Shown here: positions 4,190 through 58,403 of the stretch, in pieces
How positions within the stretch are numbered: position 1 is the stretch's first letter
Layout of the letters: each line of letters starts with the position of its first letter
Assembly (NCBI GenBank): GCA_947396885.1
Contig: OX377202.1
Span: 70,838,643 to 70,902,642 of the forward strand
Source of the DNA: Heligmosomoides polygyrus polygyrus
Lineage: Eukaryota > Nematoda > Chromadorea > Rhabditida > Heligmosomidae
Direction of reading: 5' to 3'
Length of the DNA stretch: 64,000 nucleotides
Made by a program: the position numbers and the translations under genes
Notes under the pieces: model-generated
What the model was told of the DNA's origin: nothing
What the model saw: the letters and a program-made list of their open reading frames with translations, nothing else
Databases searched by the model: none

Positions 4190-4850
4190 TATATTCCTCA
4201 TCTCCCACGCGGAAAACTGGTACCAAGACAGCCGAAACGTGGACACCACGAAAAGAAGGTTGTTCTGTGTTGCTGGTGGGACTCAGAAGGTATGCCTTAC
4301 TGCCAGTTGCTGGATAGTGAGATCACAGCATCTGGCTACGCCCTCCAGCTCTTGCGGGTGTGGTTAACATAAAGGACTCAGACATAAAGGACTTCATCAC
4401 CAGTAACAATGTCCTTCAGAGAGTCTTTTCTGTGCGGGCGAAGAAGCAGCGACTCAGCAACACTGATTCGGCATGCATGGTCAGGGTCCCGCAGCTCATG
4501 TGGTACCCAGGAGGACAAAACTTTGCGGTACCCAAGGATCTGCGACTGCCTCACAACGTGTTTTCGTACACCAAAGTGTCGCCGCCAATTCGCGAGTGGT
4601 TGAAATTGGCTTTACCTTGAAGGCTTCGCACAAGCTGTCTTCTTCCACAACAGAAGGGCGTCCGGAACGAGATCGATCTCTGAGAGAGATATCTCCAGCC
4701 TTGAAGCGCTGATACTGACGGGCCACTGTGGAAAAGTGAATGCTTCCTACTTGCAGCGCAGATGTTGGAGGCTGCAGTTCTTGCGGAATGACCTTGTAGA
4801 AAGTCGTAGTAGACAATAGATCGTAGGATTCTGCTGCTTATCGTTGACAT
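4190..4850. pseudogene. Scrambled mariner transposase
   Basis: The minus strand at about 4496-4850 encodes the N-terminal helix-turn-helix region of a mariner/SETMAR-type transposase in two overlapping frames. Recognisable parts are FKAGDISLRDRSRSGRPSV, TTRELA and DPWVP. It continues near 4380-4440 to VTGDE, the block with the first catalytic aspartate. The plus strand at about 4250-4330 instead encodes KKVVLCCWWDSEGMPYCQLL, the block that normally follows it (family form: K-V-x-L-C-x-W-W-D). The two halves point in opposite directions, so the copy is inverted internally as well as frameshifted. The last third of the transposase is not visible. Confidence 0.65.
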
Positions 4851-18705: not shown

Positions 18706-19195
18706 CTTTTGTTTCCGATTGAACCGTTTAATGCAAGCCCATTTGGGGGAAGGGGTTAGTTTTACGTTGGACAAAGCAGGCTTAGATGCCCTGCTTCAGA
18801 TGCGGATGATCTATGCGTGCTTCGTTAAATTCTTAGCTTCTCTATTTTAAGCACTTTTGAAGTACAATTTTCCTGAACTCTGCGGAGCAAACTAGGGTGG
18901 ACTCCCCCTCCCTCATTATACTTGCACCAACGGTTTCAAAGGGTTCGAGGAATTTGACGGATCTGCCCTAGTGGGTTGGGGGAGGTCAACCACTTTTTGC
19001 TCGACAACTGTTGCGGAATTGAAACTGAAATGCTTTTTTATAAAGGAATAGTAGTGTTTCCCAATTTCCGGAAGGAGAGGAGGACATCTCCTGTTTGTGA
19101 TCGTTAAGCTTTCCTGCTGTGCCACATCCAACCCTAATATAGGTCCTTGTCACTTTTTCGAGATTTCAGTATTTCGAGATTTCAGTATACTTGTG

Positions 19196-19440
19196 CTCGA
19201 ATAATCGAATTCGAATAATTATTCGAATAATTTATTCGAATTCGATTTTCGATTATTTGATTATTCGAGTTCCGTAAATTCGAATAATTATTCGAATTCG
19301 ATTATTCGAGTTTAGCAAAATCGAATAATTATTCGAATTCGATTATTCGAGTTTTGCAAATTCGAATAATTATTCGAATTCGATTATTCGAGTTTTGAAA
19401 ATTCGAATAATTATTCGAATTCGATTGTGCGAAAATTCTA
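19196..19440. repeat. Subterminal AT palindrome array (left)
   Basis: At least four tandem units of about 50-55 bp have the core TTCGAATAATTATTCGAATT followed by CGATTATTCGAG. The core is itself palindromic. It occupies the left subterminal region of the nested hAT-like element and is related to the right array. Confidence 0.85.
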
Positions 19441-19980
19441 ACAATATTCGAATTTCGAATACGGGGTAGTTTCGAATGTGGCATAATGATGATTTTTGTG
19501 TGCGGCGTTCATTTCGGTGACGACTGTTTTCGATAGCACACTGTCGAGGAGCTCACCGTAACGAAAACGCATTCAATATCCTACTATACATAGAAGGGTC
19601 GTGTGTGTGCGTGCGTGTTTCCATCAGCCCATCACAACTGGCGTGGGGAAATGGCGTATTGGCGATACTGACCGCAGTTGATGGCGATCGACTGCGGTCC
19701 GAAGCTTCAGCCGTTGAGGTCTCGTCGATCTCGCTGAACACAAATTTGAAGTTCGTTTTTGAAATTATCGGTTGAAGTTGATCGACCTATTGATTTTCTA
19801 TAGGGAATTCGTTGAAGCGCATCAATTGTATGACCGGTCTTCGTCGATATTTTCAAAACCTAACTTCACATTTGCGTTCTTTGCGACCACGACTGTCATC
19901 GATGTCATAAACTTGAATACTCTACGGAATTCGCACAATAAACACAAATTTTGACGGAAAATTAAAAAAATGAATTCAGA
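19440..19980. other. Interior of the nested hAT-like element, no gene
   Basis: Only short frames on both strands (62 codons minus, 60 codons plus). No motif recognised. It ends at a satellite-like motif, GATTCGTGTTCAGTGACC. Confidence 0.3.
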
Positions 19981-19984
19981 TTCG

Positions 19985-22230
19985 TGTTCAGTGACCTCGA
20001 TTACCTCAGGCCTGAAGTTTCGATCTTATTGAATGATGTTTGCGAAAAACCGATAGTTTGATGGTCCTTTTGTCGGCTGGACGTCTTCTCAGCGGGGATC
20101 ACAACTGTTCCAGACCGCTCGATCTCGGGCTGCTTGCATCCGGTGAGGCAGACTCCGCTCTCTGAAAGATCTTGAGAATGAGTCTCCCATCGCGTTGGCA
20201 GTCGTCCCAGTGGTCTCTTATGGTCTCTCGAAGCCATTCTGTGACACGGAGACTCCACCTATCGTCCTTTCGTCGAAGCAGGTGTCCGGCCCAGCGATAT
20301 TTGGACTTCTTCATGTACTGCAGCGGGTCTGATAATTGTGACTTCTCCCGTAGCTCCGAGCTTCGTAGGCCTTCTTGCGACTGCTGACAAAGGCTTGTCC
20401 TCAGAAAACATCTCTCCAGTGCACGATGCGTAGTTTGCATTGCTCTGGCGATTGTCTTGTTGTCGGGCCAGGTATCCGTCGCGTAACACATCACAGGCAG
20501 TACAGAGGCGTTGAATATCGAGGCCCTGAGGCCGGGGTCCTTGACCTGATCTGTGACTTCGCGAATCGAACTGAAGGCTGCCCATGCTGCGCGTCTCCTG
20601 CGGGCGGCGATTTCAGGAGCGAGGTCGTTATCCATGTTCAGCTCTCTTCCCAGATAGACGTAGGAGTCGACCTGTTGCAGAGCGACTCCATTTAACCTTA
20701 CGAGTCCCGTGTCATACCACTGGTTGACCATAAATTGTGTTTTGGACATATTCATGTCCAATCCAATCTTCATACCTGCCACATTGAGCTCGTTCAGCAT
20801 TTCCTCGACTTCTGCCGTGCTGGTAGAGATGAAAACAATATCGTCGGCGAATCGAAGGTTGCTGATCCGTATACCGTCCACAAGGTAGCCTTTATCATCC
20901 CAGTTCAAGTCTTTCATGGCATCCTGGAGTGCCGCTGTGAATAGCTTGGAAGAAATCGTGTCTCCCTGCCGTACTCCTTTCCCGATAGGAATTTTGAGCT
21001 TTAGATCGAACAGCTGGATGGTAGTCGATGTGATCGAGAAGCATTCGTCGAGAAGTCGGATGTAGGGCGATGGTATACCAACGTGCACAAGCGCGTTCAG
21101 AATGGCGTTGATTCCACAGAGTCGAACGCTTTCCGGTAATCCACGAAGACAAGGACAAGTGGAAGGTGGTATTCGCGGCTCCTCTCGATGAGCTGTGAGA
21201 CAGTCTGAATATGGTCCATGCAGGAGAAATCCTTGCGAAACCTTGCTTGCTCCACTGGCTGATATTCATCCAAGCAACGCTCTATGCGGTTATGCAGTAT
21301 CTTGGTGAACATCTTGTACACAACCGAGAGAAGACTGATGGGTCGATAGTTGTTGATATCCTCCTGCTGACCTTTTTTGAAGATTAAACTGTTTTCGACC
21401 CCTTCCATGAGTCTGGAATCCTACCAAGTCGAAGGTAGTGGTTGAAGTGCTTGGCAAGAAGTGAGCAGAGGGCACTGCCACCCGCACAAAGGAGATCAGC
21501 AGAAATGCCGTCCCGTCCGGGAGCAGTGCCCGGCTTCATCCTTCTGATGGCATGAGCAACTTCTGATTCCAGAATGGGAGGTACTTCCTCAGCGGGTGGC
21601 ATCAAGCATTTCGGGACAGTGATGGAAGAACGGAACAGATCGTAGAATTGTAGAATTAGAATTCGTAAAAAAAAAAAAAATTGTAGAATTCTTGAACGAT
21701 GACCTCCATCGCTCTTCGAGACGTTTGCGTTGTTCCATCCTTATCCACAAGGGCTAACATTATTGCCTTCTGGTCGCAGAGATCTCGTTTGCAGCGCTTT
21801 ATGCTTGAACCTTTCCCAGCCGCTTCTAACAGCTTCAATCTTTTGTAGGCTTGAATGGACTCCTTCACTGCAATTCGACAGGCCTTCGAGATGGTGACTT
21901 TTTCCAGATGGGAAGCATTAGGATCCAGTTTAACAGCTCTTCTTTGCTCCAAGAGTTTAATCGCATGTGCGTTGAGTCTTGAGGCAGACTGTGATATGGC
22001 TTCGCAAGAGCTGCTAGCACATTTCAACAGTCCTTTGGAGAGGAGGCGTAGTCTTCCGATGAATCTTCAAGAAGATTCCAATCGTACGACTTTATTGCAT
22101 ATTCCAACTCCTCAGACTTGAATATGGGAAAAATCGATAATTTGATTAATATCTTTTGATGTAGCCGTTACTGCAAAAGCTAACTTGAGATTCGTGTTCA
22201 GCGACCTCGATTACTTCGGGACTGAAGCTC
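19985..22230 (-). pseudogene. RTE-clade non-LTR retrotransposon, frameshifted
   Basis: The coding order on the minus strand is as follows. 21656-22027 is the linker before the reverse transcriptase. 21384-21605 has GTAPGRDGISADLL. 21097-21408 has INNYRPISLLSVVYKMFTK and VFVDYRKAFDSVES. 20099-21088 (329 codons) has GKGVRQGDTISSKLF, the catalytic FADDIVF and the thumb region. Two frameshifts (near 21.40 and 21.09 kb) and an A-rich microinsertion at 21.65 kb break the frame. The apurinic endonuclease domain is missing, so the copy is 5'-truncated. The 3' end near 20.03 kb has CATCATTCAAT-like sequence, in keeping with RTE tails. Both flanks carry the motif GATTCGTGTTCAG seen in the 27-30 kb satellite. 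Confidence 0.85.
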
Positions 22231-22768
22231 ACAGTTTGCATATATGACACGACAATATACCATTTTCAGTTGAAATTCAAAGTTTTTCAAATCAAATTCA
22301 ACGTTGTTACACGGGGAAGATTCCAGAAGAACGTTGAAATTTATTTCAAAAACGTTGAATTTCGACTGAAAATGCCGTATAACTCTGCAATTTGATTGGC
22401 TGACAATTCCTGTGAGATAATGAAATGAACAAATGGAGTGAACGGTTTTTTTCGCAAAGATTTGCACTTGTGCGTAGATGTTTTGCACACGTATTTCTGT
22501 AGGATTTTTTTTGTAGGATTTTGTTTGCAGGAAAAAAGTTCTCATGTCTTGCCATTTAACGAGTATTGTCAACGGTTCTGAGAAGATATTGAATGTCTTC
22601 ATTATTTGCTTTTTTTTAAAGAATTCAAATCTTTTATGTTGTCTCTGGCGAATGTTGCCGTTGAACTTACTTTACTACATTTGCTTGAGCTTACACAATG
22701 CGCTTTTGGAGTGAGTAAACGGTATCAAACAAAATTGGCTAACACAAAAATCGCATCGTCCTTATTAA

Positions 22769-24782
22769 TACACCCGGTGCAAAATTATAGATACCACCGA
22801 TTTGTCCATTAGTAGCCGAAGGATCCGCTGCCTATGCTCAGCGGTTACCGTCGTATTCCTCACTATCGAAAGCCTCTATAGAAAATTTTAAACAGGTTAT
22901 CTCTTCAGCGCAGGATACCACGAACTTTATTGAAAATTTATCGAATGGAGACCGGTGCAAAATATAAGTTTCCTTCATAAAAAACCTGATTAATCACAAA
23001 AGTCCCTACAGACAAAGTAAGATTAGTACTTCGCCACATCACCTTTGTTGCAACCATATTGAAAATTCTGTTTTTCGTAGTACTGATTAGGTTATCAATA
23101 ACAGTTCGCTCAACATTGGCTCATGCATGAAGTATGGCGTTCTTCAGATCAAAAACCTAAGTGTAAGTGATTCCATTTTTGCACACTTTGTGTACAAGAA
23201 TGCCCCAGAAGTTCTCTATCAGCGGTGAGATCTGGAGGAAAACTAGACCACGGCAAAAGTTGAATTGTATTGGAGTTGAGCCAACCTCTTATAAACCTTG
23301 TGGAAAAGGTACAGAATAACTAACTACAAGGTTCTTATTCGCATTGGCAGGTTCCTTTACTCTATGGTACCTAAAGCATCGATAAGGAACAAATACCTGG
23401 GTCTTCACACATTGGCTTCTCGCAGGAAATTCTTTGATATTTGTCGGGTTTATAAGTTAATCCACTTTTCGCGCTTTGTAGGCCCCAAATTCTTTGATCT
23501 GCGTGCGTCTCAAACAAAAGGGGAGCCTGAGAAGCTTCCTGTCAGTCGACCTAAGCTGAAGCTAGCCCTTCTCCTCATAGGACATTGGTTTGACTCGCTC
23601 TAGGTGTGTCTTCATGTTGTTGTGTTGTTGTAATACTTTTTTCTGCCGCTTGCGCTTATCGCGAACGTATTGAATAAATAAATAAATAAATAAATAAATA
23701 AACCTGCAGTTGACTGCGATACGTGTATTAATGCATTATCTTGTTTAAAAATTAGGTTGTGCCTAGGAAGTCTCCTTAAATATGTCAAAAGGTGATTTCG
23801 GAGCAATTCCTAGCAGTCTTCCCTGTTCATCCTACACGAGACGAACTTCCGAAACGAACGAGACAAGTCCGCATCCAGAAAACGCAGCCCAACCATGAGA
23901 CTTTCACCGTCAAGGTTGCGCCTAGAGGATACTCAACCTCTTTTCTCAGATCTCTCCTGTAGTGTAAAAGAAGCGGAATCTCGATGGGCCCGACGGGTAC
24001 AGACACTATTCGAGAGATTTGAGGAGAGAGAGAAGCGAGTATTCTACAGGTGCTACTTTGTCGGTGGAAGTCTCATGGTTTCGGCTGCGTTTTCTGGATA
24101 CGAACTTGTTGCCTTGGAGTTCGTCTCGCGTAGGACGAACAGTGAAGACTACCAGAAATTGCTCGGAGATTACCTTCTGCCATATTTCAGAAGTTTTCGT
24201 AGGCACAACCTTATTTTCCAACAAGATAATACATCCATACACGTATCGCAGTCAACTACAGGTTGGCTCAACTCCAACAGAACTCAACATTTGAAGTGGC
24301 CTAGCTGTTCTTCAGATCTCAACCCGAAAACTAGAAATCTAGTGGGACATTCTTGTACACAATGTACAAAAATGGAACCGCTGAGACATCGGTTTCTGAT
24401 CTGAAGAACGCCGTACTTATTGCATGGCCCAATGTAGAGCAAGCTGTTATTGATAACTTTGTCAGCAGTATGCCAAATAAAATGTTCGATATGGTTGCAA
24501 CAAAGGTGATGTGACGAAGTACTAATCTTACCTTGTTTGTAGGTACTTTTGTGATTAATCAGATTTTCTATGAAGCGAACTTATATTTTGCACCGGTCTC
24601 CATTCGATAAATTTTCAATAAAAGTTCGTGGTATCCTGCACTGATAAGATAAACTGCTTAGAATTCTCCTATAGAAGTTTTCCATAGTGAGGAATACGAT
24701 GATAACATTACTGAACCTCGGCAGCGGGTTCTTCGGGTACCAATGGACAAACCAGGGGTGAACCTATTTTGCACCGGGTGTA
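22769..24782. mobile_element. Tc1-type element rearranged as a 2-kb palindrome
   Basis: The outer ends are CACCCGGTGCAAAA at 22771 and its complement TTTTGCACCGGGTG ending at 24780, each next to TA, the Tc1/mariner target. The right arm on the plus strand encodes the second half of a Tc1-like transposase: VGGSLMVSAAF, IFQQDNTSIHVS, SSDLNP and, in another frame, SDLKNAVLIAW. The left arm on the minus strand encodes the same region again (NLIFKQDNALIHVSQSTAG). The reverse complementarity therefore runs far past ordinary terminal repeats, almost to a centre near 23.96-24.00 kb. The N-terminal DNA-binding half is absent. A frameshift near 24.33 kb and the changed SSDLNPKTRN block mean it is inactive. 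Confidence 0.85.
23285..23702 (+). mobile_element. 5'-truncated LINE 3' end inserted in the Tc1 palindrome
   Basis: The plus frame ending at 23603 contains RNKYLGLHTLASRRKFFDIC and VYKLIHF, like the conserved C-terminal tail after the reverse transcriptase in Jockey/CR1-type LINEs (family form: L-x-S-L-x-x-R-R-x-x-x-D-L-x-x-x-Y-K). A short 3' region and an (AATA)n tail (23671-23702) follow. The left palindrome arm breaks at AACCT and resumes at AACCTG, a short target duplication. The match of both arms on either side shows that the LINE arrived after the palindrome formed. Confidence 0.65.
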
Positions 24783-24784
24783 TT

Positions 24785-25312
24785 AAATTATAATAAAGTT
24801 TATTCGATTATTCGATTTTTTCGAATATTCGATTATTCGGAAATTCGAATAACGAAAAAATGGGGTTATTCGATTATTCGGAAATTCGAATAACTAAAAA
24901 ATGGGGTTATTCGATTATTCGGAAATTCGAATAAACGAAAAATGGGGTTATTCGATTATTCGGAAATTCGAATAACTAAAAAATGGTGTAATTCGATTAT
25001 TCGCTCATTCGAATTTTCGAAAAATGGGGTTATTCGATTATTCGGAAATTCGAATAACCGAAATGGGGTTATTCGATTTTTCGGAAATTCGAATAACTAA
25101 AAAATGGGGTTATTCAATTATTCGGAAATTCGAATAAACGAAAAATGGGGTTATTCGATTATTCGGAAATTCGAATAACTAAAAAATGGTGTAATTCGAT
25201 TATTCGCTCATTCGAATTTTCGAAAAATGGGGTTATTCGATTATTCGGAAATTCGAATAACCGAAAAAATGGGGTTATTCGATTATTCGTTCATTCGAAA
25301 AAATTTAAAAAA
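24785..25312. repeat. Subterminal AT palindrome array (right)
   Basis: About a dozen units of 36-45 bp have the core GGGGTTATTCGATTATTCGG followed by AAATTCGAATAAC. Some units carry the variant TTCGCTCATTCGAATTTTCG. It sits at the right subterminal region of the nested hAT-like element. The unit differs from the left array but shares the ATTCGAAT heart. Confidence 0.85.
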
Positions 25313-25779
25313 GCACAAGTATAGATTTCAGAGTAGTTTGTTGCAGTTCTGAGATACTGAGCGTTGTGCTCAGTTTCGCTGCTCCTCCGGTTCATCGCGT
25401 GGCATTCGCCTGGAAGATTCCTCTGCCAAGGTGAGCAGTTTTGTGTTTAGCCTTCTGGGACAATGCTAATGGAAAAGTGGGGGGAGGGGAGGAGAGAGAG
25501 AGATTGCTGATTGTTGTTACGCTTACTATGCACTTACTCCAATAGCGGTTGGATCATTCCTCCACTCCTTCACCGCACCACAAACTTCTTTTACACGCTA
25601 CACGCTGAACCGGCTAATGTTTGGCATTATTGCGAAGATTGTGCTTTCTTGTTTCCGATAATTTCAACAACTAATTTCATGAATGACTTCGAGTTTCAGA
25701 TAAGGGATAATGGGACAAGTATCTCATCAAAACCTCACGTGAGTGCTCTTTGCGTAAGCACGCCCTAGTGGTGTAGAAG

Positions 25780-27062
25780 AAATCGTCTACTTGCGGCTAC
25801 ATCTACCAGTTCAAGAGCAAGCATGCAAGAGTGTATGAGAAGGTATGTTTTTATTTACATAGATACTTCGATAGCATAGATCGTCTTTTAAAAGGTTACT
25901 TTAAATTGCTCTTGAAGTTTGTTTAGTAGGATAGTTTCGGTGGAGCTGTCTATTGAGATTTTTGGCGACATTTGAGGGACGCCTAATAACTCTTCTATAG
26001 AGGGGGTGAAAAACTGGCAGTGACGAAAATATGATTTTGCCGTTGAGAGAGCGTTGGATGCCCTTCTAACGTTTTTTTAAGTTTCTGTAGGTGTAAAGTT
26101 TTACTACTTTCACCACGTTTAAATTTTACTATGAGTGGTGGTGTTGGTGGGGGAAGGGGGGGGGGGGCAACCGTTTCACCAGAGACCACCGCGTTTTTTA
26201 TGCAAGGGATTATCGCTTAATTGTGCAGGTGTGACAAGGGTGTGTGATTGTCAGCAAAACTTTTGCACCGAGGTTTGCCGGGTAACGACGATATCAAGAT
26301 TTGGAAAATGTAATATCCACAATAATTTATCATTTTCTTACCTACATTTTTCAAGTTAAGATGAAGGTTTTTGCACAAATAACAATTTCAATAAAAGATG
26401 TAGAGTTGGATTTTTTAAGGTTATGTACCGTACAATTTTATGAAAGAATCCGTCAACAGGTCATGGGACTGTCCACCAAACCCGTCGATGAGAATAAAGA
26501 ACCACCGTGAACTCAGCAGAGGAAACTGTGGAGAAATGAGCTCACTTGACGCAGCAATCGATGACGTAGGCGTTTTCATTTTGGTTGAAAGTAGGCCCGA
26601 AACGAAGGACACCGGACAATCATGCAGCTGATTTGCTTAGATTCTCTTCCATTACATACAATTGAGAAATCCGGCTTTAAAAATCGCTCACGATCGTCGC
26701 TCCCTAGTGGAAACACCTCAAGTCCAGGACCCATTTCACACGAAACGAGCTGCCGCACCTTTTTAAGGAGTATGAAAACAAACTTAAGGAGGAACTGAGA
26801 AAGGCGGAATGGGTAGCCGCATCGTTCGATCTGTATACCGATGAAGGGAACATACACCAAGTGATAGCTGCTGTCGTCCACTTCTTACAAGACTCTGAAC
26901 AAGTACATCGCGTCCTTGGAATAATCCATGCAAAAATGACAGCCATCATGAAGTTTTTATCAAGAACAAGTGCTCCGTCACGCCTGTCGGCGTGCCTCGC
27001 ACTTGCGTTCTTCGCGCGATGTTGCAGTATCACTAAGCTAAGGAGATTCACGTCAAGTTAGC
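25780..27062 (+). pseudogene. hAT transposase, N-terminal remnants (outer element)
   Basis: A segment ending at a GTATGT donor at 25843 reads CGYIYQFKSKHARVYEK, like the end of a BED zinc finger. After about 850 bp with no clear frame, 26700-27060 encodes NELPHLFKEYENKLKEELRK and AEWVAASFDLYTDEGN. This is the region where hAT transposases have E-L-K-K-A-x-x-x-x-x-T-x-D-x-W-T, with the first catalytic aspartate. Stops surround both parts. A (T/G)-rich run with eleven G lies at 26158-26168. The frame is then cut by the satellite block. Confidence 0.55.
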
Positions 27063-27235: not shown

Positions 27236-29760
27236 GTTTTCGGCACGTCTACCTGATTCTCCAAACACGTTGAGCGAAGTCCAAATCGAATTTCAGATTC
27301 GTGTTTAGAGACTTCGACCACCTCCAGGGCTGAAGTTCCCAGGCAGGGAGAAGACGTCTGGGTATTTTTCGCCTATTTTCGTGACGTAATTCACCCCCCC
27401 CCCCACCGAGTTCCCCCGCCCCTATTTTATGACTAAATCCGAACAAAGTCGATAATACGGCCTAAATGGATTGATGGCGATGGACACCTCAAATGCGGAC
27501 TTCAGCTCGCCTTCAGCGACATCGAAGTACCGAACCGCAAGAAAGATATCCACAAAAAATCGATATTCAGCCATGATTTTCGAAACTTCTCGCACCTAGG
27601 CACACTGCTCGTGAAAGAGCGTAACCGCACATGGAGCGTAATTCAATCCTGGATTTTGGTAGGGTTAGAGCGCCCTTACTACAGGATACAGGACCACAAA
27701 AAAACCGGTAATACCAGTCGATATCGACTGATAGCGCCCGATACTTCAAAAATGAACATCAGATTCCAGTTCAGTGACGTCGACTACCCCGGGAGAGACG
27801 TTTCGGATCGCGAGAAAGATACCCACAAAAAATCGATATTCAGCGATGATTTTCGAAACTTCATGCACCAAGGAACATTGCACGTGGCGTGTAATTCAAA
27901 TCTGGATTCTGGTAGGGTTAGAGCGCCCTTACTACAGAATACAGGACCACAAAAAACCGGTAATACCAGTCGATATCGACTGATAGCGCCCGATACTTCA
28001 AAAATGAACATCAGATTCCAGTTCAGTGACGTCGACTACCCCGGGAGAGACGTTTCGGATCGCGAGAAAGATACCCACAAAAATCGATATTCAGCGATGA
28101 TTTTCGAAACTTCATGCACCAAGGAACATTGCACGTGGCGCGTAATTCAAACCTGGATTTCTGTAGGGTTAGAGCGCTCTTACTACAAGATACAGGACCA
28201 CAAAGAAATCGGTAATACCGGTAGATATCGATTAATAGCGACCGACACCTCAAAAATGAACTTCAGATTCGAGTTCAGTGACGTCGGTTAGCCCGGGAGG
28301 AGTTCGGACCGCAAGAAAGATACCCACAAAAAATCGATATTCAGCGATGATTTTCGAAACTTCATGCACCAAGGAACATTGCACGTGGCGTGTAATTCAA
28401 ATCTGGATTTTGGTAGGGTTAGAGCGCCCTTACTACAGAATACAGGACCACAAAAAACCGGTAATACCAGTCGATATCGACTGATAGCGCCCGATACTTC
28501 AAAAATGAACATCAGATTCCAGTTCAGTGACGTCGACTACCCCGGGAGAGACGTTTCGGATCGCGAGAAAGATACCCACAAAAATCGATATTCAGCGATG
28601 ATTTTCGAAACTTCATGCACCAAGGAACATTGCACGTGGCGCGTAATTCAAACCTGGATTTCTGTAGGGTTAGAGCGCTCTTACTACAAGATACAGGACC
28701 ACAAAGAAATCGGTAATACCGGTAGATATCGATTAATAGCGACCGACACCTCAAAAATGAACTTCAGATTCGAGTTCAGTGACGTCGGTTAGCCCGGGAG
28801 GAGTTCGGACCGCAAGAAAGATACCCACAAAAAATCGATATTCAGCGATGATTTTCGAAACTTCATGCACCAAGGAACATTGCACGTGGCGCGTAATTCA
28901 AACCTGGATTTCTGTAGGGTTAGAGCGCTCTTACTACAGGATACAGGACCACAAAGAAATCGGTAATACCGGTAGATATCGATTAATAGCGACCGACACT
29001 TCAAAAATGAACTTCAGATTCGTGTTCGGTGACGTCGATTAGCCCGGGGGGATGGGGTTCGGCCTGCAAGAAAGATACCCATAAAAAATCGATAATACGG
29101 CTCAAAATGGAGTGAAGGCAATCGACACTTTAAAAAGGGCCTTTGCGCTCGCGTTCAGCGACGTCGACTACCCCGGGAGGGATGTTTCGGACCGCAAGAA
29201 AGATATCCAGAAAAAAATCGATAATACGGCCCAAGCTGGACTGATGGCGCTCGACACTTCAATAACGGGATTCAGAATCGTGTTGACCAACCACGATACC
29301 CCCAGGACTGAAATTTAAGACCACCACAACGACATCCACAAACAACATAATACGGGTCAAAATGCAATGAAGGCAATCGACACTTCAAAAGGTACTTCGG
29401 GCTCGAGTTCAGCGACCTTGACTACCCCATGAGGGAAGTTTTGTACCGAAAGAAAGATATCCACAAACAAACTGATAATACTGCTCAAAATAGAGTGAAG
29501 GCAATCGACACTTCAAAAAGGGACTTTGCGCTCGCGTTCAGCGACGTCGACTACCCCGGGAGGGATGTTTCGGACCGCAAGAAAGATATCCAGAAAAAAT
29601 CGACAATACTTCTCAAATAAGGATTGAAGGCGATCGACATTTCAGAAACGGGCTTGAGGCTGGTGTTCTCCGACCATGATTCAGCCAGGACTGAAATTTC
29701 CGATCGCCAAACGACATCCACAAAAAATCGATAATATCGGTCGGTATTGATTGCCTCCCC
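27236..29760. repeat. About 250-bp satellite array with 126-bp short units
   Basis: Anchor motifs such as GACGTCGACTACCCCGGGAG recur at about 27776, 28027, 28278, 28528, 28779 and 29030, a period of 250-251 bp. Two unit types (CGACTACCCC and CGGTTAGCCC) give a partial 501-bp higher-order pattern, with neighbouring 501-bp blocks nearly identical. The flanks (27480-27600 and 29080-29750) contain shorter units of about 126 bp. These lack a segment of about 124 bp starting TTCAGCGATGATTTTCGAAA. The 226-codon frame at 27611-28291 is a by-product of the repeat. Confidence 0.9.
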
Positions 29761-30109: not shown

Positions 30110-30400
30110 AGGAACTTTTCGAGGATTTTCACATAGAGGATAAGGTGAGGACAAGTGCATTATATGACGAAAGGAACTCGGTTGAAGTGCCTCATACATC
30201 AATCCACCGCCGCACACATTTGATCTTGCTTCTTCACAAAAACTCTTAGTTCAGGTGTCTGCAGTCATTCGTGATGGCGCTAGCGACATCACTCTAGTGA
30301 GAGCACTCCTCGGAATCGATCATTGGGATTGTCTCTCCCACAAGCTAAACTTGGCTTCTGTCGTGACGTTCGCCACGCTCCATCACGACTCTTCAAGGGC
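30110..30400 (+). pseudogene. hAT transposase, middle remnant
   Basis: The plus frame contains VSAVIRDGASDITLVRALLG followed by WDCLSHKLNLA. This matches the hAT block V-x-D-N-A-x-N then C-x-x-H-x-L-N-L, which holds the second catalytic aspartate and the C-x-x-H motif. Preceding DNA (30115-30205) may carry the short exon before it. The frame is interrupted after the block by the GC-rich insertion. Confidence 0.6.
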
Positions 30401-31300
30401 ACACACGCTGAGAGGCGCACTGGTCCCGCCGCGCAGGGCATACGGTCGCGCGCACGCGCCGCGACGCACTATAAACGCCTTCCCGCGCGCACCCGGCAGT
30501 CTCCGGCCGTCGTCGTCGCTCCGAGCGGTCGGTCCGCTCTCCGCTCCGGCACTCCATCGTCAGCGCAGTGTCCACACCATCAGGACTTCGACTCGACAGG
30601 CCGCGCAGGACTCCAGGACGACCAGGACAAGACGCGCAGAGATGACAACAGAGGTAACCACAGAGACCGACCGAGCCACCGCCCTCGTGAGCGCAGGCTC
30701 CAGGGTAGGAGCGAGGAAGGATCTGCGGCTTGCGCTTGGGGCTGACCCTTAGGTAAGCTGGCGGGGCTCAGTCTTGACTCGTAGGCATTGTGTTCCATAT
30801 GTGTATTGCCTGTACGTTGGGTTGATATGAAGTATAATGTTTGGTGCGCACTGTCATGTGACTTGAGAGCGGGGGAAGGTTTTACTCTGAGCACAGTGGT
30901 AATACTGCAGAAGGTCGGCTGGTTCAATTGTATCACGCGAGTGATGTGAAGATGGGCGAGAGTCGCCGTGGGGCCAGCGCAGGTGCAGACTGCGCAGGAG
31001 ATCCTAAATAACATCCGCATTGGTATGAGGTGTGCTAAGTCGGGGCAACAAGGGCCTCACCCTTACGTGGCAGGTTTGGTAAGAGCTAACGCGTATAGGT
31101 AAGACCTCGACACCGGTTGTGCCTCACACGTGGCCTCGGGTTGAGGGCCGCATGAGTTCTACCACCGATGCAGCGGACTCACCCGGGGCACGACAGCTTC
31201 GAAGCGTGGATATCAGACTTACAGCGGGCTAAAGGTCGTAGTGGAAAAGCTAAGGAAATAATCAAGAAGGTAGGCAAAAGTGATATACATCGAGCGAGAA
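30400..31300. other. GC-rich insertion with TATA-like box and short ORF
   Basis: The base composition changes sharply at about 30405, to a CG-rich segment with CACTATAAACG near 30468. Downstream is a small frame starting ATGACAACAGAGGTAACC at 30642 (MTTEVTTETDRATALVSAG), ending TAG at 30750 and followed by GTAAGC. It looks like a promoter and leader rather than hAT sequence, perhaps the 5' region of an unidentified retroelement. 30.8-31.3 kb is non-coding. Neither boundary has a clear target duplication. Confidence 0.35.
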
Positions 31301-35745: not shown

Positions 35746-35764
35746 TAATTCAAATCAGTTTCTT

Positions 35765-36335
35765 TAAGCCTCATTTGGCTGGTATCGAGGTTGTAAGCTG
35801 TGACAACGATGTTTTATTGCGATCAAAACCTCTAGCGCCGGGTGGGACTCGAACCCGCACCACCCTCTGACCGGGCGGCAATGCTCTACGCCTTACACCA
35901 CCGGCGCCGTCTGATCGAACGCAACATCCACACCTCGTAGGACCGATCAGCACCCACCCGTATCCGGGATGAGCTGGCCGCTGATGAGCATGGGATCAGT
36001 TAAGCTGATGGTCCCGGTCAGAGGGAGTTTGCGGGTTCGAGTCCCGCCTGGCGCTAGAAGTTTTGATCGCAACAAAAAAATCGTTGTATAGCTTACAACC
36101 TCGATACCAGCCAAAAGGCTTAAAGGAACTGATTTGAATTGTTTCTATCAAGACCACCAGCTTAACTGGTCCCATGCTGATATCAGCGGCCAGCTCATCC
36201 CGGATACGGGTGGGTGCTGATCGGTCCTACGAGGTGTGGATGTTGCGTTCAGACGGCCCCGGTGGTGTAAGGCGTATAGCATTCCCGCCCGGTCAGAGGG
36301 AGGTGCGGGTTCGAGTCCCGCCTGGCGCTAGACGA
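35765..36335. mobile_element. Second tRNA-like SINE family, three copies head to head
   Basis: Copy A (35765-36015, minus) and copy C (36165-36330, plus) share a leader (CAGCTCATCCCGGATACGGG), a tRNA-like head (GGTGGTGTAAGGCGTA ... GGTTCGAGTCCC) and a body starting CTAGAGGTTTTGATCGCAA. Copy B (about 36020-36140, plus) has the B-box half, body and tail. The head of copy A folds with a 7-bp acceptor stem (one G-U), a D arm, and an anticodon-like stem with loop GGTCAGA. The loop lacks the U33 of real tRNAs, so this is a SINE rather than a tRNA gene. Frames inside (60 and 71 codons) are artefacts. Confidence 0.75.
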
Positions 36336-39509: not shown

Positions 39510-42461
39510 TCAAGTGTTGTAGCTTATCTGGCGTGGATCCATGTCGAAAAGTCTTGTTGGTCTGCGTGTTCGGCCCGATCGTCGTGGTTGTTCAGCTTCC
39601 TGCACTGGAAAAGACGGTGGTGTAACGGAGTTTTGGTCCTCGAGAGCTGGAAGTGCTGGTGCGGTAGAGTTCTGGATATTGGCGGGTCGACTTAGTGAGT
39701 GGGGACGTTCCAAACCGAACGCCTCGAAGAGCGTGTCCATGTCCTTTGTTCTGTGGTTGTCGGAATCATATAGGCGCATTCTGAGCTGGTTGGCATGGCG
39801 CGTCCATAACTCGTCTTCAACTTTGATTTTGTAGAGTACTCGTCCAATGCGCTTAACAACGAGTCCTCGGTCCAGCTTTCCTTCCCTTGGTAACGTTGTG
39901 CGTACACAAGTTGACCTGGCTTGAATGCCCGCGGTTTGGCTCCATGGTGATGATTAAACTGATTCTCCATGGAAAGTTGACATGGCGCTCGGACTCCGGG
40001 ACCGGTTTAAGTACTGAGAGTGGCGTCCGGAGTTTCCTTCCAATGCAGAGCTCTGCTGGTGATCGAAGTCCATTCGTCGTTTGAGTCGGAGTTGATCGGT
40101 AGGCAAGCAAGAATGTTTGAAGAATTTCAGGGAGTGTTCCCTCCTCTCGTAGTTTCAGAAGACTTCTTTTGAGGGTGTCAACGAACCTCTCCGCTTGGCC
40201 GTTTGACTGCGGGTGGTATGGTGGGGAAAACACGTGGTGTATTCCGTTTTCTGCGCAGAATTGAGCGAAATCCGCGGAAGCAAATTGGGTTCCATTATCA
40301 GAGACCAAGATTTCCGGCATTCCATGTCTGGCGAACGTCTGCTGCAGCAGGGCGATGGTAGCTGCTGTTGTCGTACGATCGGTGTTGAAGATCTCCGGCC
40401 ACTTTGAGAATGCGTCCACTATCACGAGAAGGTTGGTTCCTTCATACGGCCCTGCGTAGTCGACGTGAATGCGACTCCACGGTTTGTCGGGCACTGGCCA
40501 TGATGCCAGCATCGTTTTGACAGGAAGTTTGGCGGCTGAAGAGCATCTTGTGCAGCGGCGGACCATATCTTCTACATCTTTGTCGATTCCTGGCCAGTAC
40601 GCGAAGCTTCGAGCAAGGCTTTTCATCCAGCGTGTATATATTCCAGCGTGTCCGATGTGCAGTTGCTGCAGAACTCGATGTTGTAGCGGTTTTGGCACGA
40701 CTACTCGTTCAGCCAGTAGAAGATATCCATTTAGCGTGGCGACTGAGTCTCTTCGGTTGAAGAAGCACAGCAGATCCGGTCTCGTAATCTTTTTCGGCCA
40801 TGACCCTGTTGTATACTTCATCACCTGACGCAGAAGGGGGTCTCTTCCGGTAGCTGTCTTGACTTCATCCGCAGTAACAGGAAGAACTCGAACCGCATTC
40901 GTGAAAGTGTAGGATGTCATCCTCCACTGAAATAGCTGCGATAACTCGGTCTTCATCGGGAGCTGAATTATCTGCGATCAGCCTTGAAAGTGCGTCAGCT
41001 TGACCAAAGTTTGATGTCGTGCGGTACTGGATGTTGAAATCGTATCCAAGAAGCGTCGTTGCCCATCTTTGGAGTCGGTTTGCGGTATATACCGGGATCC
41101 CTTTCTTTCCTCGAAATATGGTTAGAAGAGGTTTGTGATCTGTGAGGAGGGTAAACTTGCGGCCGTGGAGCATCCTGTGGAATTTCTTTACGGCGAATAC
41201 GAGTGCCAATCCCTCCTTTTCGATTTTACTGTAGTTCTTTTCTGTCGGCTGCAGGGATCGATCGAGAAGCAATTGCCTTCTCTGAGCCGTCGGGGTATCG
41301 GTGTGAAATGACGGCGCCAATTCCATAGTTCGATGCATCAGCAGCAACTACGATTTCTTGCTGAGGGTCGTAGTGCGCTAGGAGTCGATCAGAGCATAGT
41401 ATTGCTTTTGCTCTGTTGAAGCTGTTGTGGCAAGCGGAGGTCCAAACGAATTTAGCATCTTTTGCTAGAAGGGCATCAAGCGGTGCGCGAAGGTCCCTCA
41501 TTTCCTTCACAAAATTTCCGTAGTGGCTGAGGAGTCCTAGGAATGAGCGGAACTGTGTGATGTCCTTCGGAGCCGGCATCCTTCGGATCATGTCGATTTT
41601 GTGGGGATCTGGTCGTCTGCCGTCTTTGTCCACAATGTAGCCGAGGTAATTGATTTGGGATGCAGCGAACGTACATTTGTCGAGTCGAACGTGTAGACCG
41701 CTATCCACGATTCGCTTGAAAAATGCATCCAGGTTGTGTTGGTGCTCTTCCATAGTGCGTCCGACTATTATGACATCGTCGAGGTAGGCGACCACACCTT
41801 GCAGACCAGCGAGTGTCGCGTCCATGAGCTGCTGAAAAATAGCCGGTGCCGACTTGACTCCAAATGGCATTCGGTTGTACTGGCAGAGTCCTCTGTGGGT
41901 GTTGATTGTCAGAAGATTTTTAGATTGATCGTCCATTTCGACCTGGAGATATGCGTCCGCGAGGTCCACGTGTGAGAAGTATTGTCCTCCATTTAGAGTC
42001 GCAAAAATATCCTCTGGCAGAGGGAGTGGATAATGATGGAGTTCCAGGGCGTCATTGAGTCCTGTCGAGAAGTCATCGCAGATGCGTAGGGTTCCATTTG
42101 ACTTCTTGACAATCACACTAGGCGCCGCCCAATTTGAGTAGTTCACTTTTGAAATGACGCCAATAGATTCCAATCGATCAAGTTCCTTCTCTACCGCAGG
42201 TAGGGCTGCGTATGGTACCGGAAACTTAGGTCGGAAGATCGGCTTTACTCCTGCCTCAGTTGCAGGGTGGCTTTGAATAGCTTGTATCGTCCCAGACCGT
42301 TCTTGAAGGCCTCTGGATATTTCTGCTTTAGTTGCTCGGCTACGCTGATCTTCGGATCCATGGAGATGGTGCTTATTGTGGCGGGGGGTAGTCCTGGATC
42401 GGTTCTGGGGAGTGAATCCATGATAGCGTATATCCCATTTTTGAGATCCATTCTGATCCAA
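39510..42461 (-). pseudogene. Ty3/gypsy pol: RT, RNase H, integrase, K02A2.6-like, frameshifted
   Basis: 42461-41226 is the reverse transcriptase (YPLPLPEDIFATLNGGQYFS, MPFGVKSAPAIFQQLMD, catalytic YLDDVIIV, FLGLLSHYGNFV). 41347-40865 is RNase H (YSKIEKEGLALVFAVKKFH, TLLTDHKPL). 40956-39853 is the integrase. Its parts are an HHCC region (HIGHAGIYTRWM ... RRCTRCSS), catalytic VDYAGPYEG, VSDNGTQFAS and HPQSNGQAERFV, and a C-terminal tail ending near 39510 (RRSGRTRRPTRLF). Frames change near 42.3, 41.25, 40.92 and 39.9 kb, so pol is broken by at least four small indels. Domain order is that of Ty3/gypsy. The closest style I know is the nematode K02A2.6-type element. Confidence 0.9.
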
Positions 42462-43698
42462 GCAAGTTGGAGGGGATGTCGGCCACGTAAAATGTTCCTT
42501 GAGCGGAAGAATTGTTGAATTTGTAAGTGCAGTGACGTTGACCGAGGAAAGGGATACGGTCTCCTGAAGCGCTGTGAGCGATGAGTGAAGGAGGTCGCAG
42601 TTCTGGCTTCCCCATGAGCGTCCAGGTGTCTTTGCTGATGACGGTTACGTCCGAAGCAGTATCAACTTGGAAGTTGATATCCTGGTCCTGCACTTTGATG
42701 ATTGCATAAAGGCGATAAAGGCTGCAGTTGACACTTGAGACGGTGTAGATGGCTTCGGATCGTGCTGCGTGTTGATTTGACCGATTGATTGGCCGTGAGG
42801 GCCGGTGTGGTTTGGCACGGCTCCTGACTGAATAGCAGTATCCTTCCTTGTGTCCAGTTCTTCTGCATTGCGAGCACTTGTGGAGCCGGTACGTGCAGTA
42901 TCGAACGAAATGCATTCCTCCACAGAGCCAGCAGGCTGATGGAGGTAGCCTGGATCCCGTCTCTTGACAGTTGCTCTCCTTTGTAGACGCGTTAGGTCGT
43001 CTCTGTCGGTATTGAATCGGCGGTTGTCGATGCGGTTGTCGAGCGGTGGACGACTGCTCGATTGATTAGATAGCTGGAGTACCACTTTCGACCATCTCCG
43101 TGTCGTGTTTGAGGTTGATGAGCCTCTTGCACTCCTCTGTAAGAGTTTGGGTGGTGCAGGTTGAGTCCGCCTCTATTTTGTCCAGTAGATTGAGGCGAAT
43201 GTAGGCGTCCTCGCTCGATTGCAGACCACACACGAAGATTAGGCATTTGAACTGGTTGTCATCGCACCCCGACAGTTTGAACCGTCCACATTCCCGATTG
43301 ACGCGTCCTGCATACGTCGCGAAGTCGTCCTTCGGGTTCCTTGAGAGCTTCATGCAGGCATAACGTATGCTGAATAAGGACTGCTGTGGTCCAAACAGGT
43401 CCTTCAGTAAGGAGACAGCGTCGTCGAACGTGACATCTCGGGGAGTTTTCGGTAAGATGTAGTTGACGTATTTCTCGTAGGCAGCAGCGTCGAGTTTATG
43501 GAGCAGGAGTCGCACTCGAGTCGCTTCGTCCAGTCGCTGTGCGTCGATTGTAAAGATATCGTCGTGGCGGCGATACCACGCCTCGAAGGTAACGTCAGCT
43601 TCAGGCTCGTACTTGAACTGAGCGCCGCGTGCGGCCAGTAGGTCGAATTCCTTTGCTGGATCAGTCCTTGACGAAGATTGTTGTGGCTGCTGCACCAT
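42373..43698 (-). pseudogene. Ty3/gypsy gag and protease, frameshifted
   Basis: 43698-43066 is gag (FDLLAARGAQFKYEPEADVT, a start typical of K02A2.6-like nematode elements, ending MVESGTPAI). 42915-42373 holds one zinc knuckle (CSQCRRTGHKEGYC), then the retropepsin-type protease with FQVDTASDVTVIS as the active-site loop and HSASGDRIPF after it. At least two frame changes lie between 42.87 and 43.09 kb. The start at 43698 follows a region with no LTR, so the 5' end of the element has been lost. Confidence 0.85.
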
Positions 43699-43869
43699 GG
43701 AACTTTGAAGAGTGTTGATGAGCGTTCTATGCAGTCGTTTCGTAGTTTTGAGCTTTCACCTTTTCTTAATTGCTACACAATATCCTTTCCTACTATATAA
43801 AAGCGAAAACGTTTGTCGTTTGTCTGTGTGTGTGTTTTTTTTTGTTTGCACAGAAGTGCTGGAGGAGTG

Positions 43870-44275: not shown

Positions 44276-44683
44276 CCAGTAATGGGGGAGCGGTGAAGAG
44301 TGGGGTCCAATGAAGAAGGGAGGGGACGCTGTGCCTGAAAGCGGCGCGGACAAAGGCGCGGGACAGTGCCTGCGGAGACAATTAGCGTCGACTCGCGCAG
44401 TGACACCCGCCGCTTCGCACTCAGCCAGACAGCTCTCGCCGCGGAGGCGATGGTGACCCTGCCAACTACAGGATCCTGTAGGTCGACCAGATTTGGTGTG
44501 ATTACAATCGATAGAGGGATAGGAGGCTCAGACGGCTGGCATTGGTAATCCAGAATATGGGACTGATCTGAACCCTATCATCTTCTATATCAGAATTTCA
44601 AGCTCTATCGAATGAGCCAAGGAAAAATCTTGTCTCAATAACCCTTACAACATTTTTTTCTGGCGCTGTTTAACTTTCATTAA

Positions 44684-44990
44684 ATAAAGGATAAAGGACG
44701 GCGTTACTCAATCCCTTCTGGGATGCGCCAGCGCGTTCTACTTCTACGGGATGTCGTGGAGGCGACATGAATGCGTATTTGGCCATACAATGACTTGCGG
44801 TGGCCAGCCGATGAACAAGTCAGCGCTTTATCCTTCCCAGACAAGTCTGGTACCAATTCACCGACCCCGGAGGGATGGAAGGCTTGGTTGGCCTGGGCGG
44901 GAAACCCGAACCAGGAACCTGGTATCGGGTGCACGCGACAGTCGCGCCTCCTGCGACTGCGCCACACGCGCCCTTCATTAAATATCAGTT
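44684..44990 (-). mobile_element. tRNA-derived SINE, copy 2
   Basis: It has the same structure as the copy at 33.6-33.9 kb, at about 95% identity by eye. On the minus strand it has an A box (TGGCGCAGTCGC), a B box (GGTTCGGGTTTCC) and a body ending in TTTATCC repeats. The flanking duplication TTCATTAAATA (44676-44686 and 44974-44985) differs from copy 1, so the two insertions are independent, although both lie in the same foldback family. Confidence 0.8.
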
Positions 44991-45352
44991 TTTATTTACA
45001 TCAGGCATGCTTCCAGGCTACTGATAAATAAACCATACCATCTCCTGTACTAGAATTTCGAGCTCTATCAAATGACTCAGAAAAACCCTGCCTCAACAAC
45101 CCGTAAAGCGGTTTTTTCAGGCGTTGTTTATTTTTCGCCAAATATCGGTTTTCAGGATGAAATGAGAGACTTGCTTCCAGGCTAAATTTGCATGAGTATT
45201 CCAATTAGATAGACGAGAGCTCTTTTAACAGAAGTTTAAAGCAATAGTTTCAACATTGCATCTCTTAGATCTTTAGCATTTCGCACACACCAAATATCGA
45301 GACTAAGACTGGATAGGTAGTTCATGAAATCTAATGTTCACCGAGAATAAAT

Positions 45353-45646
45353 TCACACACACACACACAGAATCACACAACGCTTCAAATTGCTCGCCCA
45401 GTCGTTTGTGGCTTCTAGCAGTTTTTTGTCCTCGCGTTCCACTGGCAATATACCTGCATAGCCAATGTCTCCTTCACCAATTAACGAGTTAGGAAACACT
45501 GGTGAAATGCTTTGATAAAACTGGAGTGCTTCGAGGTTGCTAGGAGGTCTACCTGTTATCGAATAGAACTCGTCGGGCAATTTCAGACTGTGAACACGCT
45601 CTACGCGCTGAAGGATCATAATGTCGTTTTCAAAAAGGGTGAGCAC
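45353..45646 (-). CDS. Unidentified ORF inside the long-inverted-repeat element
   Basis: The 97-codon frame contains VERVHSLKLPDEFYSITGRP, LEALQFYQSISPVFPNSLIG and REDKKLLEATNDWASNLKR, ending in a (TG)n-encoded tail. Its amino-acid composition is that of an ordinary globular protein, unlike the repeat-derived frames around it. It lies exactly in the loop between the inverted arms. It may be a captured exon of a host gene, or an accessory gene of the element. I do not recognise it, and splice signals at its edges are not clear. Confidence 0.35.
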   Translation of the reverse strand: MLTLFENDIMILQRVERVHSLKLPDEFYSITGRPPSNLEALQFYQSISPVFPNSLIGEGDIGYAGILPVEREDKKLLEATNDWASNLKRCVILCVCV

Positions 45647-46284
45647 TTGGGGTCTCTTAGAGGCCTCCTGGGGTTTCTATCTAACTATACTTCTCGCACA
45701 ATTTCAGCCTGGAAGCATGCCTCGCAGTTAGTTCCGATATAAATAAAAACTGAACTACTATAGAAAAATACACAACGCCTAAAAGCCGCCTTAAAGATTT
45801 TTAGACAGGGTAATTTCTATCTCATTTGATAGAGATCGAAATTCTAGTACAGGAGATAGTAGAATTCACATCAGTAGCGTGGAAGCATGCTTCGTAGTTA
45901 ATTCAGATATAAATAAAAACTGATATATAACAAGTTAAACAGCGCCAGAAAAAAATGTTGTAAGGGTTATTGAGACAAGATTTTTCCTTGGCTCATTCGA
46001 TAGAGCTTGAAATTCTGATATAGAAAACGATAGGGTTCAGATCAGTCCCATATTCTGGATTACCAATGCCAGCCGTCTGAGCCTCCTATCCCTGTATCGA
46101 CTGTAATCACACCAAATCTTGTCGACCTACAGGATCCTGTACTTGGCTGGGTCACCATCGCCGGCGAGAGCTGTCTGGCAGAGTGCGAAGCGGCGGGTGT
46201 CACTGCGCGAGTCGACGTTAATTGTCTCCGCAGGCACTTTCCCGCGCCTTTGCTCGCGCCTGCTCGCTTTCATGCAGAACATCC

Positions 46285-46760
46285 CTCACCCAGTGAAGGG
46301 GGACCGGCGAAAGATAGAGGGATCAGTGAAGAGGGGACCAGTAAATCGAGGTAGTGAAGGTGAGAGAAGTAGTAGGGGCCGACGAAGAGGGGAGACCAGT
46401 GAAGGGTGAACCGGAAAAGGGTGACAACAAAGAAGGAACCACTGAAGAGGAACCAGTAAAAGGGGGACCACTGGTTGGGACCGGTGAAGGAGGGGGGGGG
46501 GGGGGTCCAGTGAACGTGGGGGGGGGGGTGGACCTGTAAAGGGTCCACCTATAAAGGGGAACCAGTGAAGGTGGGAGCAGTAATGGAGAGCGGTGAAGGG
46601 GGTAGGGATTCAGTGAAGGAGACCAATAAATGGGGTTCCAGTGAAGGACCAGTCAAGTGGGGACCAGTAGGGCCCAATAAAGGGAATAAAGGGAACACAA
46701 GTTAAGGAGGTTGAGTAAAGGGTCCAGTAAAAAAACCATTAAAAGGAGATCGTAATTTAT
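46285..46760. repeat. GGACCAGTGAAG-type simple repeat
   Basis: Purine-rich units such as GGGACCAGTGAAGGGGG repeat at about 12-25 bp over nearly 500 bp, with runs of 14 and 11 G at about 46492-46505 and 46518-46528. The same repeat continues left of the foldback element at 44260-44330. Frames on either strand follow the repeat. Confidence 0.75.
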
Positions 46761-50630: not shown

Positions 50631-51234
50631 AGTTGCTTCCGGTATGGAACCCAAATGAAGTATTGCACGGCCGTAGACCGCAAGTCAGCGACTACAAGGA
50701 GTACGAGCAATCAGAAACAACTGTTTATTCGGTACAACGTAATACAACCAAAACGAGCGAACGTCTATAAAAGGAAAGTAAGAGTATAATAAAACGGGTA
50801 GGCTAAACGACGGCGGACCCTCGGGAGATCAGAGCGTCCCGGAGGCTCGGGTGGTCCCGTTGCTGTGGTGATCGCTACTCGGAATCCTAGACCAGAGGAA
50901 CGCACTCGCAGGAAACCCCGAATGTGGCAACTGAACTGAGGCGACTAGAGCGAGACTGCGCACAGGGTCAAAGGTAGAAACGCTTTCAGATGGCTCCCGT
51001 AGCCAGAGACAACTAAACCGGTGCTATGAGGCGAGGATGGCGAAGTAGGACCGGTTACCCCCACCAAAACTGTTTCACGATGGCCGCGACCCCCCTTGTC
51101 ATTTTCTTCGCGCCCGATTCTTGGCGCCTCCGACGGTTAAACGACCCAAGCGGCGCAGTACCATTTTCGACCTACCGTTTCCCCCGATCCACCTCAACCG
51201 CCAAGGAAACTGAAAACATGGTTCACTTCTAACA
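50631..51234 (-). repeat. 3' LTR of the young gypsy element
   Basis: On the minus strand it begins TGTTAGAAGTGAACCATG (51234) and ends GGAAGCAACT. It is aligned base for base with 57800-58403. The purine-rich AAGGGAGGGCA precedes it directly and serves as the polypurine tract. On the minus strand the LTR contains TTTTATAGACG, a possible TATA region, near 50770. Confidence 0.9.
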
Positions 51235-57799: not shown

Positions 57800-58403
57800 A
57801 ATTGTTTCCGGTATGGAACCCAAATGAAGTATTGCACGGCCGTAGACCGCAAGTCAGCGATTACAAGGAGTACGAGCAATCAGAAACAACTGTTTATTCG
57901 GTACAACGTAATACAACCAAAACGAGCGAACGTCTATAAAAGGAAAGTAAGAGTATAATAAAACGGGTAGGCTAAACGACGGCGGACCCTGGGGAGATCT
58001 GAGCGTCCCGGAGGCTCGGGTGGTCCCGTTGCTGTGGTGATCGCTACTCGGAATCCTAGACCAGAGGAACGCACTCGCAGGAAACCCCGAATTTGGCAAC
58101 TGAACTGAGGCGACTAGAGCGAGACTGCGAACAGGGTCAAAGGTAGAAACGCTTTCAGATGGCTCCCGTAGCCAGAGACAACTAAACCGGTGCTATGAGG
58201 CGAGGATGGCGAAGTAGGATCGGTTACCCCCACCAAAACTGTTTCACGATGGCCGCGACCCCCCTTGTCATTTTCTTCGCGCCCGATTCTTGGCGCCTCC
58301 GACGGTCAAACGACCCAAGCGGCGCAGTACCATTTTCGACCTACCGTTTCCCCCGATCCACCTCAACCGCCAAGGAAACTGAAAACATGGTTCACTTCTA
58401 ACA
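57800..58403 (-). repeat. 5' LTR of the young gypsy element
   Basis: It begins TGTTAGAAGTGAACCATG at 58403 and ends GGAAACAATT at 57800. Nine single-base differences from the 3' LTR were counted by eye (about 1.5%), with no indels, which points to a recent insertion. Confidence 0.9.

What the first reader, a model, noticed from the sequence alone, without database searches (positions are those of the whole stretch)
22771..24780. A Tc1 transposon turned into a 2-kb palindrome
Both arms encode the same C-terminal half of a Tc1-like transposase in opposite directions, and the complementarity reaches nearly to the centre. The outer ends still look like proper Tc1 ends at TA. Transcription from either side would give a long hairpin RNA, a natural trigger for siRNA silencing of Tc1 relatives. 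Because both outer ends are terminal repeats, the unit might also still be mobilised as a foldback element.
Basis: partly seen in the sequence, partly recalled or inferred. Interest (0 to 1): 0.75.

Follow-up and report, generated by a model that had tools for sequence, protein, structure and literature searches.

The report
Palindromic Tc3 remnant inside hAT-like transposon
A broken jumping gene that was once copied into a mirror image of itself has been carried around a worm genome hundreds of times as a passenger inside a larger, different kind of jumping gene; it could form long hairpin RNA, but nothing yet shows that it does anything.

Summary
The palindrome is real. Element 22771-24780 lies between TA dinucleotides. 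Its arms align over 768 bp at 84% identity, apart from a one-sided 418-bp insert. Both arms are the 3' part of a Tc3-like transposase gene. They meet near the first catalytic-Asp codon, with a 37-bp loop belonging to the right arm only.

It is not a one-off, and it does not look like the mobile unit. The same junction occurs 226 times at up to 3 mismatches (control 0). Of 58 places I could read, 55 share the right host junction and 41 share both. The palindrome sits in a 6.1-kb repeat (19186-25323) with 11-bp terminal inverted repeats and 8-bp target duplications in 4 of 4 copies checked. This is a hAT-like element that also holds a reverse-transcriptase ORF.

In both trees made, left and right arms lie on opposite sides of one branch, so one duplication event preceded amplification. 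Arm differences show no codon-position bias. An assembly artefact is excluded. A hairpin RNA is energetically plausible; an RNAi role is untested. Genome statistics match Heligmosomoides polygyrus (inferred).

The parts
19186..25323 (.). Whole mobile unit: hAT-like, apparently non-autonomous element of 6.1 kb
   Evidence: TIR TATACTTGTGC at 19186-19196 and its inverse at 25313-25323; three other copies begin at the same left end with different outer flanks; 8-bp target duplications in 4 of 4 copies
19178..19185 (+). 8-bp target duplication GATTTCAG, left copy
   Evidence: note that the left flank holds a 16-bp tandem that repeats these letters
25324..25331 (+). 8-bp target duplication GATTTCAG, right copy
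19197..19432 (.). AT-rich 41-bp minisatellite at the left end of the unit
20102..22066 (-). Reverse-transcriptase reading frames (broken) inside the unit; RVT_1 in 20102-21265
   Evidence: Pfam RVT_1 E = 5.7e-13; ORF list
22769..22770 (+). TA at the left end of the palindrome
22771..24780 (.). Tc3-like palindrome
22771..23965 (-). Left arm: 3' part of transposase gene and terminal region, reading right to left, interrupted by the insert
22771..22785 (+). Outer direct-repeat motif CACCCGGTGCAAAAT, left
22952..22963 (+). Inner copy of the motif, CCGGTGCAAAAT (IR/DR-like arrangement), left arm
23288..23705 (+). One-sided 418-bp insert ending in (AATA)n, with 5-bp duplicate AACCT; looks like a truncated non-LTR retrotransposon end
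   Evidence: alignment, tandem repeat, duplicate; Pfam found nothing in its 102-aa ORF
23962..24002 (+). Centre: loop present only in the right arm, encoding KKRNLDGPDGYR; begins at the DE codons of the first catalytic Asp in the single-orientation relative L087
24003..24780 (+). Right arm: 3' part of the transposase gene (to about 24514) and terminal region
24585..24596 (+). Inner copy of the motif, ATTTTGCACCGG, right arm
24781..24782 (+). TA at the right end of the palindrome
24800..25312 (.). AT-rich 41-bp minisatellite at the right end of the unit; length varies between copies

Best explanation
A Tc3-like transposon lost its 5' half and was duplicated head to head in a single event, giving two 3' halves that face outward from a centre near the first catalytic-Asp codon. 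The result cannot encode a transposase. It came to lie inside a hAT-like non-autonomous element, gained a truncated retrotransposon insert in one arm, and was then multiplied to hundreds of copies by transposition of that larger element, as a passenger. Shown: single shared junction, shared host flanks, unit TIRs and 8-bp target duplications, arm clades, absence of coding constraint. Inferred: that a hAT transposase moved the unit, that the palindrome entered by TA insertion, and that the duplication arose by template switching or fold-back repair. No function beyond passive carriage is shown.
For: One junction, 226 matches at up to 3 mismatches, reversed control 0. 31 of the scored places, the window's own copy counted, include both palindrome ends and the insert at 90-100% identity. 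Host flanks: right junction shared in 55 of 58 places, both in 41 of 58. The three places without the right junction are L081 and L088, truncated, and L087, a single-orientation relative. Unit ends: TIRs and 8-bp duplications GATTTCAG, ATACGTAG, GGGCATAC, ATATTTAG in 4 of 4 copies with both ends held. Left arms and right arms on opposite sides of one branch, support 100/100 with 15 copies and 100/99 with 18 copies including old ones. Arm differences by majority 84 of 761, codon positions 18/17/13. L087 carries the missing N-terminal half in a single orientation and places the breakpoint at the DE codons.
Against: The empty host site was sought once (36-bp pattern, up to 3 mismatches) and not found, so entry of the palindrome by TA insertion is not proven. 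No hAT transposase with these ends was identified; Pfam found none in the two neighbouring ORFs tried. 7 of the first 39 fetched copies lack the left end and none lacks the right, a pattern that a plain cut-and-paste element does not explain. L087 is itself decayed.
Confidence: 0.82

Rival explanations
1. The palindrome itself is the mobile unit, moved as a foldback or MITE-like element by a Tc3-type transposase acting on its outer ends.
For: Both ends carry the TIR with TA, and an inner copy of the motif about 180 bp in. The terminal region is better conserved between the arms than the coding part, 12% versus 18% mismatch.
Against: 55 of 58 places share the host right junction; no copy at an independent TA site was seen among the places read. 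The places read are 58, against 226 junction matches, so a minority of independent insertions is not excluded.
Confidence: 0.06
2. Two Tc3-like elements inserted head to head and a deletion removed both 5' halves, instead of one element being duplicated.
For: Arms already differ at 11% of sites in the majority comparison.
Against: The two breakpoints fall within about 40 bp of each other in the transposase gene, which independent deletion ends would rarely do. Mismatches lack the third-position excess expected if the arms had come from two lineages under coding selection; two dead copies would not show that excess either.
Confidence: 0.13
3. The palindrome is kept because it works: read-through transcripts fold into long hairpins that feed siRNAs against Tc3 relatives (or into the worm's secreted siRNA pool).
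For: Predicted transcript has MFE -1065 (plus) or -1098 (minus) kcal/mol against about -504 to -534 for 5 mononucleotide shuffles, with 669-677 arm-to-arm pairs. siRNAs from transposons and new repeats are loaded on exWAGO in H. bakeri (passages of PMC6468290). Natural RNAi against Tc1 is cited in PMC6829131 (reference entry only).
Against: No transcript or small-RNA data here. Arms drift apart with no sign of being kept alike: median within-copy arm identity 0.852 against 0.940-0.951 between copies of the same arm. Against the one relative tested, L087, only 15 21-mers of the right arm and 0 of the left match exactly.
Confidence: 0.1
4. Assembly artefact.
For: None beyond the general risk for palindromes.
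Against: 226 places with one junction, 16% arm divergence with 13 gaps, insert on one side only.
Confidence: 0.01

Closest known systems
Tc3-like elements (Tc1/mariner superfamily)
   Same: DDE-type transposase with a DEKK.NLDGPDG motif (family motif recalled), TA flanks; relative L087 matches HTH_Tnp_Tc3_2_like at 26.5 bits, just under the 27.2 cut-off
   Different: Two 3' halves, no N-terminal half, no working frame
Tc4, a fold-back element of C. elegans (Yuan et al. 1991; seen only as a reference entry in PMC6829131; details recalled)
   Same: Long inverted repeats with a short centre
   Different: Tc4 moves as a unit itself (recalled); here the larger hAT-like element moves. Arms here are 15% divergent in the median copy
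hAT non-autonomous elements
   Same: 8-bp target duplications, short TIRs, many copies (family rules recalled)
   Different: Carries a reverse-transcriptase ORF and a palindromic Tc3-like remnant; transposase source not identified
Mu killer of maize (recalled; only named as a search term here)
   Same: Inverted-duplicate transposon derivative able to make a hairpin RNA
   Different: Mu killer is a single locus with shown silencing (recalled); here hundreds of copies and no shown silencing

Membership tests
Tc1/mariner, Tc3-like | DDE transposase domain related to Tc1/Sleeping Beauty | tested here: met
   Sleeping Beauty 5cr4 E = 2.6e-8; Pfam DDE_3 below cut-off
Tc1/mariner, Tc3-like | N-terminal HTH domains of Tc3 type in the relative that keeps them | tested here: inconclusive
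   L087: HTH_Tnp_Tc3_2_like 26.5 bits (cut-off 27.2), HTH_Tnp_Tc3_2 25.1 (31.5)
Tc1/mariner, Tc3-like | TA target duplication | tested here: inconclusive
   TA at both ends; empty site not found
hAT-like (the larger unit) | 8-bp target site duplication | tested here: met
   4 of 4 copies with both ends held
hAT-like (the larger unit) | Short terminal inverted repeats | tested here: met
   11 of 11 bp in the window
hAT-like (the larger unit) | Movement by a hAT transposase | not tested
   No transposase with matching ends was sought genome-wide; other superfamilies with 8-bp duplications exist (recalled)
Fold-back element | Moves as a unit with its long inverted repeats as ends | tested here: not met
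   55 of 58 places share the host right junction
Natural siRNA source | Small RNAs from the arms | not testable with these tools
   No small-RNA reads are held

The most novel reading that the evidence does not exclude
A hAT-like transposon has become a vehicle for a built-in long-hairpin cassette: hundreds of dispersed, near-uniform Tc3 palindromes whose read-through transcripts supply the worm's siRNA pathways, possibly including the secreted exWAGO pool, and silence Tc3 relatives in trans.
Probability: 0.08. Interest if true: 0.75.

Novelty: new variant of a known kind. Interest (0 to 1): 0.42.

Why it matters
It shows an inverted-duplicate transposon remnant persisting and multiplying by riding in another transposon superfamily, which turns one chance palindrome into hundreds of dispersed potential hairpin loci. 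If the organism is H. polygyrus, exWAGO small-RNA libraries from that species already exist (passage of PMC13195028), so whether such hairpins feed siRNA production is directly testable.

Tried and rejected
Protein relatives: one search with the ORF across the centre, 41 candidates, none at E <= 0.001. Viral contigs: 4 pattern stretches, none confirmed. Empty host site: 0 matches. A longer joined-flank search and a search for full-length relatives with the N-terminal part of L087 did not complete. Independent foldback transposition was considered and rejected on the shared flanks. A LINE as the carrier was considered because some copies lack the left end; rejected because the unit has TIRs and 8-bp duplications and the RT frame runs the other way. 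Paper searches showed me no listing that describes this element (one returned nothing at all); I looked at listings and at passages of five papers only (PMC10682056, PMC13195028, PMC6468290, PMC6829131, PMC3072357; the last held nothing under the term Mu killer).

Full report
The element proper is 22771-24780, bounded by TA at 22769-22770 and 24781-24782. The arms align over 768 bp with 124 mismatches and 13 gaps, one of them the 418-bp one-sided insert. The outer block of the self-comparison has E = 3.8e-147. Both arms read outward from the centre as the 3' part of a transposase gene. The right-arm frame matches Sleeping Beauty (5cr4, E = 2.6e-8). Pfam's DDE_3 is hit below its cut-off in the right arm; the left-arm pieces gave no Pfam hit.

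The centre can be read closely. In frame 23968 the right arm starts KKRNLDGPDGYRHY. A single-orientation relative, L087, carries the same motif preceded by ISDE and by an N-terminal half, which scores 26.5 bits against HTH_Tnp_Tc3_2_like, cut-off 27.2. The palindrome therefore starts at the first catalytic-Asp codons in the right arm and about 37 bp later in the left arm. Both breakpoints lie within about 40 bp of each other, which favours a single head-to-head duplication.

It is one of hundreds. After five unanswered requests the genome search worked. The window is on contig C13 of a 656-Mb genome of 1130 contigs. The first look gave 969 candidates, of which 40 were scored; 31 places reach both ends of the palindrome, insert included, at 90-100% identity, the window itself being one. 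A protein query across the centre gave 1675 candidates, of which 150 were scored. A 35-bp pattern across the junction matched 226 times at up to 3 mismatches (108 forward, 118 reverse; reversed control 0), and the places listed include all six large contigs (only the first places are listed).

It is a passenger. I read 58 places: the window, 39, 10 more, and 8 low-identity ones fetched. The host sequence beyond the right end is shared in 55 and beyond both ends in 41. L019 has a few extra bases at the right junction before the same flank. Without the right junction are L081 and L088, truncated, and L087, the single-orientation relative. The larger unit runs from 19186 to 25323. Its ends are TATACTTGTGC and the inverse. 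In the four copies for which both ends are held the flanks carry 8-bp duplications: GATTTCAG, ATACGTAG, GGGCATAC and ATATTTAG. That is the signature of hAT-like transposition (family rule recalled). The window's left duplicate lies in a 16-bp tandem that repeats the same letters, but the other three copies do not depend on it. The unit also holds a reverse-transcriptase frame on the minus strand (RVT_1, E = 5.7e-13) and AT-rich 41-bp minisatellites at both ends.

History. In 31 full copies the median arm identity within a copy is 0.852, while left arms of different copies agree at 0.940 and right arms at 0.951. Majority letters of the two arms differ at 84 of 761 scorable sites, with 4 ambiguous. 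At codon positions 1/2/3 these are 18/17/13 (window alone 32/29/21, chi-square p = 0.23), so there is no third-position excess. Two trees put left arms and right arms on opposite sides of one branch: 15 of the 31 copies, L015 left out on purpose, support 100/100; and 18 copies including old ones, 100/99, with the short left arm of L088 left out and L081's left arm on a long branch. So the duplication came first, the arms decayed as non-coding DNA, and the unit then multiplied, apparently more than once. Some old copies (L082, L084, L085, L086) hold a longer form of the insert.

The arms still recombine. In L080 the core is inverted relative to its outer arms and host flanks. In L015 the right flank and arm end also replace the left ones, and in L037 part of the left arm matches right-arm sequence better.

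Function. The predicted transcript of the palindrome has MFE -1065 or -1098 kcal/mol against -504 to -534 for 5 mononucleotide shuffles of the plus strand, with 669-677 arm-to-arm pairs and a longest perfect helix of 43 or 48 bp. A hairpin is thus plausible. Nothing shows transcription or small RNAs. Of the right arm's 21-mers 15 occur exactly in L087, and none of the left arm's do. I regard silencing as an untested possibility.

Organism. G000 has 656.17 Mb; the six large contigs met here sum to about 631.7 Mb (96.3%), and half the genome is reached at a contig of 107.4 Mb (lengths, sums mine). PMC10682056 gives 656.6 Mb, N50 107.4 Mb and 96.2% for Heligmosomoides polygyrus (passages). The identity is inferred, not given.

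Limits. The empty site was not found. The search for full-length relatives and a longer empty-site search did not complete. 58 places were read against 226 junction matches. 7 of the first 39 fetched copies lack the left end while none lacks the right (two of the 7 share flanks); I cannot explain this asymmetry.

Noticed in passing
L040, L041, L043-L047: Seven of the first 39 fetched copies lack the left part with unrelated sequence there, none lacks the right end; L041 and L043 share flanks. Unexplained for a cut-and-paste element.
   Followed up: partly
L080, L015, L037: Palindrome core inverted between its own arms (L080) and right-arm sequence found on the left side (L015, L037): the arms recombine.
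   Followed up: partly
window 26708-27058 and 30186-30749, + strand: Reading frames that look to me like hAT transposase pieces, flanking a 250-bp tandem array at 27627-29094; Pfam did not confirm.
   Followed up: partly
window 50633-51234 and 57802-58403: 602-bp direct repeat at 98.7% identity around gag-pol-like frames on the minus strand: probably the LTRs of a young Gypsy-like element.
   Followed up: no
window 39513-43755, - strand: Second set of Gypsy-like gag-pol frames.
   Followed up: no
window 44323-46285 and 35747-36332: Further inverted repeats, the second pair holding two tRNA-Thr-like sequences in opposite directions; only one passes Rfam.
   Followed up: no
window 4499-4837, - strand: Fragment with a mariner-like HTH (HTH_32 below cut-off).
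   Followed up: no
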